Of a stretch of DNA of 64,000 bases, positions 55,705-58,535 are shown piece by piece; the stretch's first letter is position 1, and every line of letters begins with the position of its first letter. The notes under the pieces are model-generated. The model made no database searches and was not told the DNA's origin. It saw only the letters and a list, made by a program, of their open reading frames with translations. Origin of the DNA: Trichothermofontia sichuanensis B231 (GTDB taxonomy: Bacteria; Cyanobacteriota; Cyanobacteriia; B231); contig NZ_CP110848.1 in NCBI RefSeq assembly GCF_026240635.1, positions 4,297,741-4,361,740 on the forward strand, in the 5' to 3' direction. The position numbers and the translations under genes were made by a program.

Positions 55705-55737
55705 TTGACAGCCATTATTGACGGGAGCGACGTGACT

Positions 55738-56289
55738 ATGCCCCAGACTGAAACCCAGGATATTCAAGCTCTCCAGGCAGAAATGGCCGCACTGCGGGAG
55801 GAGTTGCAGGTGCGTGACCAGTTGGTGCAGCAATTGTCCCAGGAATTGTTTCGCCTGGTGAAGGGCAATCAGCAGTTTATGCCCAATCCAGAGTTGTCGG
55901 AGCGGCACCAAGCGGAAATGCAGGTGATCCGGGAGCAGTTGCAACATGTGGAGGAACAGGTCGCCTTTTACCAGGAGCAGTTAGCAGCGCGGGATATGGA
56001 AGTGCAGCAGTTACGCCAGTCGGTGCAGGAGTTGACCGATCGCTCACGGATGCTGGAGCAGGTGGTGCAGGAGTTGCCCAAGGTTTACCGCCAGAAGTTT
56101 GCCGAGCGTATGGCTCCGATTCGCGAAAAGATTGCCCAGGTGCAGCGGGAAAATCGCCAGTTGCACGCCGAGTTGCAAAGTGTCAGCTACCGACTGGCGA
56201 TGACGTCGCGGGGGTCCTCGAAGTTGGATCTGCCTAGTTTTGGTAACCCCCTACCACAGGTATCGATGCCCAATTTTGGCAACGCCTAA
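55738..56289 (+). CDS. Npun_F5560-like coiled-coil protein
   Basis: A 183-residue protein that is almost entirely coiled coil, with Gln/Glu-rich heptads from about residue 8 to 160 and a conserved FRLVKGNQQFMPNP insert near residue 45. It ends with a Pro/Gly/Ser tail (LPSFGNPLPQVSMPNFGNA). It matches a cyanobacterial family of unknown function that I recall under the name Npun_F5560. ATG 55738 is preferred to an in-frame start at 55705. No membrane helix or enzymatic motif is present, so a structural or adaptor role is likely. Confidence 0.78.
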   Translation: MPQTETQDIQALQAEMAALREELQVRDQLVQQLSQELFRLVKGNQQFMPNPELSERHQAEMQVIREQLQHVEEQVAFYQEQLAARDMEVQQLRQSVQELTDRSRMLEQVVQELPKVYRQKFAERMAPIREKIAQVQRENRQLHAELQSVSYRLAMTSRGSSKLDLPSFGNPLPQVSMPNFGNA

Positions 56290-56440: not shown

Positions 56441-57682
56441 ATGGCCCGCATCAACCTGCTTGAAACCCGTACAACCCGGTTTGGTGACCTCATCAGTAAC
56501 GGTAAGATTTACCAGGTTCCCCCTTTTCAGCGTGATTATGCTTGGCAGGAAGAAAATTGGGAGGATCTCTGGCAAGATATCCTGATGCTTCACACCAACC
56601 CGGATGCGAGTCACTACATGGGTGCGCTGGTTCTACAAAATGCGAATAGGTCTGACAAGGAATTTACGATTATTGATGGGCAACAACGGCTAGCCACGCT
56701 CAGTATCATTGCGATTGCGGTTATTGACAAACTCCAGAAATTAGTCGATCGTGACGAAGATAAACAAGCCAATCAGGACCGGCAGGACATTTTAAGGCGA
56801 ACCTATTTGAGCGATCGCGACCCGCGATCGTTGCGCTACTCTAATAAAATTCGTTTGAATGAAAACAATAATGATTTCTATCGCAGTAATTTGGTTAATC
56901 CGAGAAAACCTTTGAATCCGCGATCGTTATCAAAATCCAATCGATTACTCTGGCAAGCTTTTGAATATTTTTCAGGTTGCTTAGAAGCGCTTGAAGATGT
57001 CACGAACAGTGGTGAGAAGCTAGCTGAATTTTTGACTGATACAGTTGCTCAAAGACTTCTTTTCATTCAGATTACCGTTGAAGATGAATTGAATGCTTAC
57101 ACCGTATTTGAAACCTTAAATGCCAGGGGCATAGAGCTAAGTTCAACGGATCTGCTTAAGAATTACCTGTTTTCCCTTTGTCAAGGTCCGGATGATTTAC
57201 AGGAAGTGCAGGGACAATGGCGAAGAATTATAAATACGGTACAGATGGAAAAATTTCCCGAATTTTTGCGCTACTATCTGAGTCTCAGACAAACCAGGAT
57301 AAGGCGAGAAAGATTATTCAAAATAGTGCGTGAATCTGTCAGAGATGCTGGGCAAGCATTTACGTTACTCGATGAGCTAGAAAAATATAGTAGCCTTTTT
57401 ATTGCACTTGGTAACGCTAATGATGAATTCTGGCGCGATACCCCAGAAAATCAACCCTATATTCGTGAACTCGAATTATTTGGTGTAAAACAAGCTTATC
57501 CAGCATTACTCACTGCATACGAAAAGTTTTCGCCCCAAGACTTTACTCGCTTATTGAAATTGATCAGCGTATTATCTTTTCGCTATACCGTTGTCAGCAG
57601 TCTCAATCCCAATGAGTTAGAAACACTGTATAATAAGGTAGCGATCGCCATTAACAAAGATGAGATAACAAGAAGGAATTAG
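56441..57682 (+). CDS. DUF262 (GmrS-like) part of a frameshifted GmrSD-type protein
   Basis: 413 residues. The DUF262 nucleotidase/ParB-like motif is intact (FTIIDGQQRLATLSII, about residue 74), preceded by the YQVPPFQRDYAWQ block. A helical middle region follows and the frame stops at KDEITRRN. In intact relatives the same chain continues into a DUF1524 HNH nuclease domain, which here lies in another frame right after. GmrSD-type proteins cut modified phage DNA in an NTP-dependent manner. Base composition is visibly AT-richer than the neighbours, a sign of transfer. The start at 56441 is chosen; an upstream frame to 56360 adds residues overlapping a small direct repeat. Confidence 0.85.
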   Translation: MARINLLETRTTRFGDLISNGKIYQVPPFQRDYAWQEENWEDLWQDILMLHTNPDASHYMGALVLQNANRSDKEFTIIDGQQRLATLSIIAIAVIDKLQKLVDRDEDKQANQDRQDILRRTYLSDRDPRSLRYSNKIRLNENNNDFYRSNLVNPRKPLNPRSLSKSNRLLWQAFEYFSGCLEALEDVTNSGEKLAEFLTDTVAQRLLFIQITVEDELNAYTVFETLNARGIELSSTDLLKNYLFSLCQGPDDLQEVQGQWRRIINTVQMEKFPEFLRYYLSLRQTRIRRERLFKIVRESVRDAGQAFTLLDELEKYSSLFIALGNANDEFWRDTPENQPYIRELELFGVKQAYPALLTAYEKFSPQDFTRLLKLISVLSFRYTVVSSLNPNELETLYNKVAIAINKDEITRRN

Positions 57683-58047
57683 TGCGATATATCCTTGGAA
57701 AACTGGAGCAAGACATAGCGGGGCGAAAAGATCTCCGCGACGATGGCTTTTCCATTGAACATATCTTACCGGAATCTCCTACTGAGGCTTGGCATAAAAA
57801 CTTCACTGATACTGAAATTGAAACAATGGTCTACCGGCTTGGAAATCTCACGCCTTTAGAACCTCATCTGAATCGTCAAGTTGGTAATGAGTCTTATCCG
57901 ATTAAGCAGGCAGTTTATCAAAAAAGTGTATATCAGCTAACGCAAACTATCTTGGCGGAAGCATGGACGCCCCACACCCTAACTGCCCGACAGGAACGAC
58001 TGGCACAGCGGGCTGTTCATGTTTGGAAATCGGATTTTTCCCTATAA
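57682..58047 (+). CDS. DUF1524 (GmrD-like HNH nuclease) part of the frameshifted gene
   Basis: 121 residues in the frame offset from the preceding DUF262 frame. It carries the DUF1524 nuclease signature FSIEHILPESPTEAW (the HxxP element) and YRLGNLTPLEPHLNRQVGN. The only nearby start is a GTG that overlaps the previous TAG stop (TAGTG), which would allow reinitiation. In frame, sequence upstream of the GTG (NKKELVRYIL) still looks like family sequence, supporting a recent frameshift. It could be a pseudogene, a genuinely split two-subunit system, or a base-call error. Confidence 0.8.
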   Translation: MRYILGKLEQDIAGRKDLRDDGFSIEHILPESPTEAWHKNFTDTEIETMVYRLGNLTPLEPHLNRQVGNESYPIKQAVYQKSVYQLTQTILAEAWTPHTLTARQERLAQRAVHVWKSDFSL

Positions 58048-58085
58048 TAATTGCAGCATTGGCCATCCCTGCCGCAATCTCGACG

Positions 58086-58535
58086 ATGAGTGAACCTTCT
58101 TCCCCAAAGCGATCGTTCCCCCTAACCACCGTTGGTGCCCTGGTACGGGGGCCATCTGGGCGGGTGTTGATTGTCCGAACCACAAAATGGCGGGGCACGT
58201 GGGGGGTTCCGGGCGGGAAAGTTGATTGGGGTGAAACCCTGGAAGCAGCCCTGAAGCGCGAATTCCGAGAAGAAGTTGGTCTAGAGTTAGAGAATATCCA
58301 GTTTGCCTTGTTACAAGAGGCCGTGTTAGATCCCCAATTTTATCGGCAAGCCCATTTTATTTTGCTGAACTACTGGGCCACAACCACTACGGAAACGGTT
58401 ACACCTAACCAGGAAATTGTCAAATGGGAATGGCTCTTTCCCAAGGAAGCCCTGACTTACGCGCTAAATTCCTATACCAGAGTCCTCATTGAACATTATT
58501 TAGCCTCTCTAGCATCGGCTCCCCATCATGATTAA
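58086..58535 (+). CDS. Nudix hydrolase
   Basis: A 149-residue protein. The full Nudix box is present near residue 42, GGKVDWGETLEAALKREF followed by REEVGLE, with all metal-binding glutamates. Family members hydrolyse nucleoside diphosphates linked to another group; the substrate is unknown here. ATG 58086 is preferred because upstream in-frame sequence overlaps the DUF1524 gene and has no family character. The end overlaps the SDR gene by 8 bp, so the two are probably co-translated. Confidence 0.92.
   Translation: MSEPSSPKRSFPLTTVGALVRGPSGRVLIVRTTKWRGTWGVPGGKVDWGETLEAALKREFREEVGLELENIQFALLQEAVLDPQFYRQAHFILLNYWATTTTETVTPNQEIVKWEWLFPKEALTYALNSYTRVLIEHYLASLASAPHHD

What the first reader, a model, noticed from the sequence alone, without database searches (positions are those of the whole stretch)
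56441..58047. GmrSD-like defence gene split by a frameshift
DUF262 and DUF1524 domains, normally one chain, lie in different frames with a TAGTG junction. Family-like residues continue across the break (TRRN in frame one, KKELVRYIL in the other). A 7-bp deletion between direct GGAAT repeats would explain the offset, but that is inference. The locus is AT-richer than its surroundings. It may be a decaying restriction gene, a phase-variable switch, or a true two-subunit system.
Basis: partly seen in the sequence, partly recalled or inferred. Interest (0 to 1): 0.55.

Follow-up and report, generated by a model that had tools for sequence, protein, structure and literature searches.

The report
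Deletion-split GmrSD-type defence gene
A cyanobacterial gene for a DNA-cutting anti-virus enzyme, normally one protein, has been cut into two adjoining reading frames by the loss of about 100 bases, and is most likely inactive, although the join happens to look able to restart translation so that two separate pieces might still be made.

Summary
DUF262 (56441-57679) and DUF1524 (57682-58044) lie in different frames, joined at TAGTG. In the 34 of 39 related loci where it could be measured, the spacing across this joint is 129, 126 or 123 bases, always in frame; here it is 29. The lesion is therefore a net loss of about 100 bases, not 7. It removes about 33 conserved residues (two short helices and the start of the DUF1524 domain) and shifts the frame. 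Of 53 distinct close loci, 43 are intact single chains and none shows a conserved two-protein form. Eight others carry eight different lesions, so the gene seems to be lost repeatedly in cyanobacteria.

Most likely this is a recently broken, non-functional restriction-type gene. One alternative stays open. The GTG at the stop has an SD-like AAGGA just upstream, made by a codon that is Lys in 42 and Arg in 1 of 43 intact relatives but Glu here. The published two-chain CT596 GmrS/GmrD, itself a stop, re-initiation and deletion cloning artefact, kept nuclease activity (PMC4437046). A natural, attenuated two-chain enzyme is possible, at about 25%. Phase variation and programmed frameshifting found no support.

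The parts
56441..57682 (+). DUF262 / GmrSD_N half: ATG start (MARINLL...), DGQQR motif, 413 codons, stop TAG 57680-57682
   Evidence: PF03235 E 3.9e-38; PADLOC HEC-06 PDLC04154 profile 1-412 of 569; 83% identical to L002; start matches that of relatives
57682..58047 (+). DUF1524 / GmrSD_C half (HNH): GTG start overlapping the stop, 121 codons; lacks about the first 22 positions of the domain
   Evidence: PF07510 profile 25-137 of 138, against 2/3-137 in 5 of 5 intact relatives tested; PDLC04154 449-568
57666..57684 (+). Deletion joint: net ~100 bases absent compared with relatives (129 to 29 between the codon for residue 404 and the GTG); exact ends uncertain by a few bases
57673..57684 (+). 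SD-like AAGGA (57673-57677), 4-base spacer, GTG start: possible termination-reinitiation site
   Evidence: sequence; function is inference

Best explanation
This is a probably horizontally acquired, single-chain DUF262-DUF1524 (GmrSD/DndI/SspE-type, PADLOC HEC-06-like) nuclease gene. A roughly 100-base out-of-frame deletion removed the last short helices before the HNH domain and part of that domain, and put a stop codon at the joint. The most likely result is a truncated DUF262 protein with no working nuclease: a recently dead defence gene, one of several independent losses of this family in cyanobacteria. Shown: the deletion relative to the relatives compared, the frame change, and retention of the other catalytic motifs. 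Inferred: acquisition by transfer (from base composition), loss of activity, recent age, and that the cost of carrying the enzyme drives the losses.
For: Spacing across the joint is 129 (31), 126 (2) or 123 (1) bases in the 34 of 39 loci where it could be measured (not L027, L037-L040), against 29 here. Of 53 distinct close loci (66% identity or more to L002), 43 show no internal stop or frame change, 8 are broken in 8 different ways, 1 runs off its contig, and 1 is the window. Residues 412-444 have a mean majority fraction of 0.81, against 0.85 for residues 1-411 and 0.76 for 445-567. In an AlphaFold2 model of the intact relative L002 this stretch holds helices 413-419 and 427-434, in blocks with pLDDT 92-96. 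The Pfam DUF1524 match is cut at its start (25-137 against 2/3-137). The window's C half folded alone is poor (mean pLDDT 55, no strands), while the same stretch in the intact model has block means of 75-96.
Against: The two halves show no further stop or frameshift. Departures at near-invariant columns (9 of 194 in N, 1 of 40 in C) lie within the range of intact relatives (0-17 and 0-6), so there is no sign of long decay. The joint carries a plausible re-initiation site. A two-chain GmrS/GmrD with a deletion between the halves was active (PMC4437046).
Confidence: 0.63

Rival explanations
1. The split gene still works as a two-chain enzyme. Ribosomes end at TAG and restart at the overlapping GTG, giving separate DUF262 and DUF1524 chains that reassemble, possibly with reduced or altered activity and lower toxicity, like the CT596 GmrS/GmrD pair.
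For: TAGTG overlap with AAGGA 4 bases upstream. The AAGGA arises from a codon that is Lys in 42 and Arg in 1 of 43 intact relatives but Glu here, so the change probably came after the deletion freed it (inference). Of 55 rows compared at this joint (three of them duplicates of others), only L044 has both an SD-like motif and a start codon there. DGQQR and HNH motifs are kept, and near-invariant columns are kept as well as in intact relatives. The originally cloned two-chain GmrSD was a stop + re-initiation + deletion artefact that kept activity (PMC4437046, section 3 part 1 and passages).
Against: About 33 conserved residues and about the first 22 positions of the DUF1524 domain are missing. 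The C half alone models poorly, from a shallow alignment. Relaxed constraint explains the Lys to Glu change equally well, and L044, an intact gene, has a similar motif without any split. AAGGA at 4 bases is closer than the usual optimum (recalled). None of the other 52 close loci shares the split. How the CT596 loss lies relative to the HNH motif was not checked, so the parallel may be loose.
Confidence: 0.25
2. The deletion is a sequencing or assembly error in this genome.
For: No reads were available, and none of the 58 other genomes is of the same genus or family. The founding two-gene GmrSD record was later resequenced as a single gene (PMC4437046, PMC4619093).
Against: The genome is one contig, 99.76% complete. 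A 100-base internal loss is not a typical read error (general knowledge). The Glu codon at an otherwise basic position suggests a lasting lesion.
Confidence: 0.07
3. Programmed -1 frameshifting or phase variation makes a full-length chain in some cells.
For: The second frame is the -1 frame and is open from 57664.
Against: No XXXYYYZ heptamer in the 90 bases before the stop. Bases 57640-57740 fold no better than shuffles (z +0.67). A shifted product would still lack about 33 residues.
Confidence: 0.03

Closest known systems
HEC-06 / Orf5 models of PADLOC-DB (PDLC04154, PDLC02687)
   Same: The two best-scoring models for both halves (N half E 6.5e-172 and 3.2e-173, C half E 1.2e-38 and 1.3e-31, in that order of models)
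   Different: Those profiles are one chain of 569 and 543 positions; positions 413-448 of PDLC04154 are unmatched here
DndI (PDB 9JFL), phosphorothioate-sensing DUF262-HNH nuclease
   Same: Closest solved relative by sequence (E 1.1e-36 with the family profile) and by fold of the intact relative (Foldseek E 2.1e-16); DUF262 + HNH in one chain
   Different: About 21% identity, TM-score only 0.46-0.47 with large rmsd; DndI sits beside dndBCDE, while a DndC model finds nothing in this genome; broken here
Two-chain GmrS/GmrD of E. coli CT596 as first cloned
   Same: Stop codon, re-initiated second chain and a deletion between the halves (PMC4437046)
   Different: That was a cloning artefact in a laboratory plasmid, with an 84-residue connector missing, and it was shown to be active; here it is chromosomal, about 33 residues are missing, and activity is unknown
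BrxU (PDB 7P9K) and Eco94GmrSD, single-chain Type IV enzymes
   Same: DUF262-linker-DUF1524 with DGQQR and HNH motifs; fold match of the intact relative to BrxU E 1.1e-4
   Different: Intact single chains; BrxU is not among the sequence matches at E 0.01

Membership tests
GmrSD-type (DUF262-DUF1524) enzymes | DUF262 domain with DGQQR motif | tested here: met
   PF03235 E 3.9e-38; IIDGQQRLATL in the translation
GmrSD-type (DUF262-DUF1524) enzymes | DUF1524 domain with HNH-type motif | tested here: met
   PF07510 E 6.6e-23; EHILPE, GN and N invariant in 20 sequences and present, but profile positions 1-24 are missing
GmrSD-type (DUF262-DUF1524) enzymes | Both domains in one chain, the form of all 43 intact close relatives | tested here: not met
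   Different frames, stop at 57680. A broken member by descent, not an intact member
GmrSD-type (DUF262-DUF1524) enzymes | Nucleotide-dependent cleavage of modified DNA | not testable with these tools
   needs protein
PADLOC HEC-06 | Full-length match to the HEC-06 profile | tested here: not met
   Halves match 1-412 and 449-568 of 569; the middle is unmatched
DndI (phosphorothioate-sensing) | Genome carries the dnd modification genes | tested here: not met
   TIGR03183 DndC: 0 matches in the own genome; other dnd/ssp genes not searched
Conserved two-subunit GmrS + GmrD system | Relatives encode two separate proteins at this point | tested here: not met
   Not seen in the 52 other distinct close loci, one of which (L027) ends before the joint can be judged; L014 has a nonsense codon at residue 450 plus a second one at 563, which reads as decay

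The most novel reading that the evidence does not exclude
A natural, chromosomal birth of a two-chain GmrSD-type enzyme. A deletion split a single-chain nuclease, and a later change at a codon freed from coding created a Shine-Dalgarno-like site, so that stop and restart are coupled. The host keeps an attenuated, less self-toxic restriction enzyme, the same outcome that laboratory cloning gave for CT596 GmrSD.
Probability: 0.22. Interest if true: 0.6.

Novelty: new member of a known kind. Interest (0 to 1): 0.3.

Why it matters
As a broken defence gene it is ordinary, but it adds a clean case to a pattern seen here: this DUF262-DUF1524 family is disrupted by different lesions in 9 of 53 distinct close loci, window included (one of the 53 cannot be judged), which suggests that carrying the enzyme is costly. 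[quoted passage not shown]

Tried and rejected
7-base deletion between GGAAT repeats: rejected, spacing 29 against 129 and only one GGAAT. Slippery site or structured frameshift signal: none found. Assembly-error control with part of FtsH in the same 388 genomes: one search lists only its 150 best rows; 8 of these 150 carry a stop, and 6 of the 8 reach residue 588 or beyond, about where most matches have already ended. FtsH is under strong constraint and the capped list favours strong matches, so this controls only roughly for sequence error. Decay test by departures at near-invariant columns: inconclusive, the window is in the range of intact genes. Window's C half alone by AlphaFold2: poor model from a shallow alignment of 20, so only weak evidence. 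Mobile carriers: 6 plasmid records (E up to 1e-50) and 2 phage records (E up to 1e-20) hold only distant relatives under 60% identity. NCBIfam gives no match for either half, L002 or L037. Insertion-site comparison through the neighbouring NUDIX gene was dropped: only 2 of 193 other genomes have a close NUDIX. Literature on DUF262 + cyanobacteria + pseudogene: one paper in the listing, on the HEPN superfamily, not read. PADLOC/HEC-06 papers: listing only.

Rows dropped before counts: loci whose best segment was under 66% identity to L002, identical or >98.5% identical rows (including L025 and L030), and L027 (contig end) from the intact set. The 34 spacings still include the near-duplicates L025 and L030. 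One search handed out loci only for its 30 best matches, which favours intact genes; it also lists two shorter matches (G191, G070) that were not fetched and are not counted. flags one TGA each in G236 and G299; one search finds no stop within residues 1-567 of these (L094, L103), so they are counted as intact.

Full report
Observation. The window lies in a one-contig 4.44 Mb genome; the closest relatives of the gene are cyanobacterial. The gene is the only PF03235 match in that genome at E 0.001. The DUF262 half (56441-57679) and DUF1524 half (57682-58044) are in different frames and meet at TAGTG. Both are AT-rich compared with their neighbours. Neighbours tested match FtsH-type AAA/M41 protease, pyridine nucleotide-disulphide oxidoreductase, NUDIX, short-chain dehydrogenase, RecA and HAD families; the gene directly upstream (55705-56286) has only weak coiled-coil-like matches. 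It looks like a lone, probably acquired gene among ordinary genes. I did not scan the rest of the genome for defence systems.

What the lesion is. I compared the distance from the codon for residue 404 of the DUF262 half to the first codon of the DUF1524 half in the 34 of 39 loci where it could be measured. It is 129 bases in 31, 126 in 2 and 123 in 1, always a multiple of three; in L014 a nonsense codon follows the joint. In the window it is 29. The net loss is about 100 bases (97 if a 126-base form was ancestral). The two halves align to the intact relative L002 at residues 1-411 and 445-569, so about 33 residues are gone. A 7-base change would restore the frame but not this stretch.

What was lost. 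Positions 412-444 are well conserved (mean majority fraction 0.81 in 43 intact relatives). In an AlphaFold2 model of L002 (mean pLDDT 82) they hold helices 413-419 and 427-434, just before helix 445-461, which leads towards the HNH motif. The new GTG corresponds to residue 449, inside that helix. The Pfam DUF1524 match begins at profile position 25 in the window and at 2 or 3 in 5 of 5 intact relatives tested.

Relatives. Of 53 distinct close loci, 43 show no internal stop or frame change, one (L027) runs off its contig, and nine, the window included, are broken. The other eight are: L014 (stops at 450 and 563), L015 (stop at 262), L019 (stop at 517), L031 (stop at 186), L033 (frameshift near 241-247), L037 (residues 200-422 missing in frame), L038 (155-510 missing in frame) and L039 (residues 1-74 not found, 227-418 missing, stops at 171 and 175). 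Sequence error in some records is not excluded. No locus shows two separate proteins at this joint as a conserved form.

Is it dead? Outside the deletion the halves look maintained: 9 of 194 near-invariant columns differ in the N part and 1 of 40 in the C part, within the range of intact relatives (0-17 and 0-6). The lesion is therefore recent, or the halves are still used; these data cannot tell which. Against use: the lost core segment, and the poor stand-alone model of the C half (mean pLDDT 55; a shallow alignment, so weak evidence).

For use: the joint reads AACAAGAAGGAATTAGTG. Residue 447 is Lys in 42 and Arg in 1 of 43 intact relatives but Glu here. That codon would not be translated in a chain that starts at GTG, and the change makes AAGGA four bases before the GTG. 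Of 55 rows compared (three duplicates), only L044 has both an SD-like motif and a start codon there, and L044 is an intact gene. This fits relaxed constraint after the deletion and, less certainly, selection for re-initiation.

Literature bearing on it. PMC4619093 (abstract, section 12 and passages read) reports that fused GmrSD is much commoner than the two-gene form and warns that adjacent split records may be errors. PMC4437046 (section 3 part 1 and passages read) states that the two-chain CT596 GmrS/GmrD was a cloning artefact (stop codon, re-initiated GmrD, small deletion) that retained activity, and that the full gene was toxic in higher-copy plasmids. PMC8565348 (passages and section 20 read) shows that in BrxU the linkers entwine in the dimer and that nucleotide hydrolysis is needed for cleavage, so loss of linker-side helices should matter (my inference). 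PMC11662687 (passages only) describes DndI, the nearest solved relative. A full-text search for GmrSD with reinitiation lists two papers, of which I read parts of PMC4437046 only; I make no claim that natural splits are unreported.

Function of the intact family (inference). From DndI, SspE and BrxU, the intact relatives are expected to be nucleotide-dependent nucleases that respond to a DNA modification. Which one is unknown. The own genome has no DndC match, so a resident phosphorothioate system of the Dnd kind is unlikely; other dnd/ssp genes were not searched.

Verdict. A broken single-chain GmrSD/DndI-type gene, most likely inactive (0.63). A naturally split, still-working enzyme is the main rival (0.25).

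Noticed in passing
L014, L015, L019, L031, L033, L037, L038, L039: The same gene family is disrupted in eight other distinct close loci by different lesions, four of them in records titled as isolates, which suggests repeated loss of a costly gene.
   Followed up: partly
L037:3085-4107; L039:6001-6879: Two loci lack nearly the same middle part (residues 200-422 and 227-418 of L002) in frame; L037 leaves a 341-residue open frame that still matches both Pfam domains. It could be decay or a compact form; L039 also has stops.
   Followed up: partly
L014, stop at residue 450: A nonsense codon falls one codon past the window's new start codon position (449), but the gene has a second stop at 563.
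   Followed up: partly
window 58086-58532: The NUDIX gene just downstream has a relative at E 1e-20 or better in only 2 of 193 other genomes of the class searched, so it too may be an acquired or rapidly changing gene.
   Followed up: no
window 57963-58535: The mechanically listed 190-residue NUDIX ORF overlaps the DUF1524 end; the NUDIX domain starts well inside it, and a start at 58086 without overlap is more likely.
   Followed up: partly
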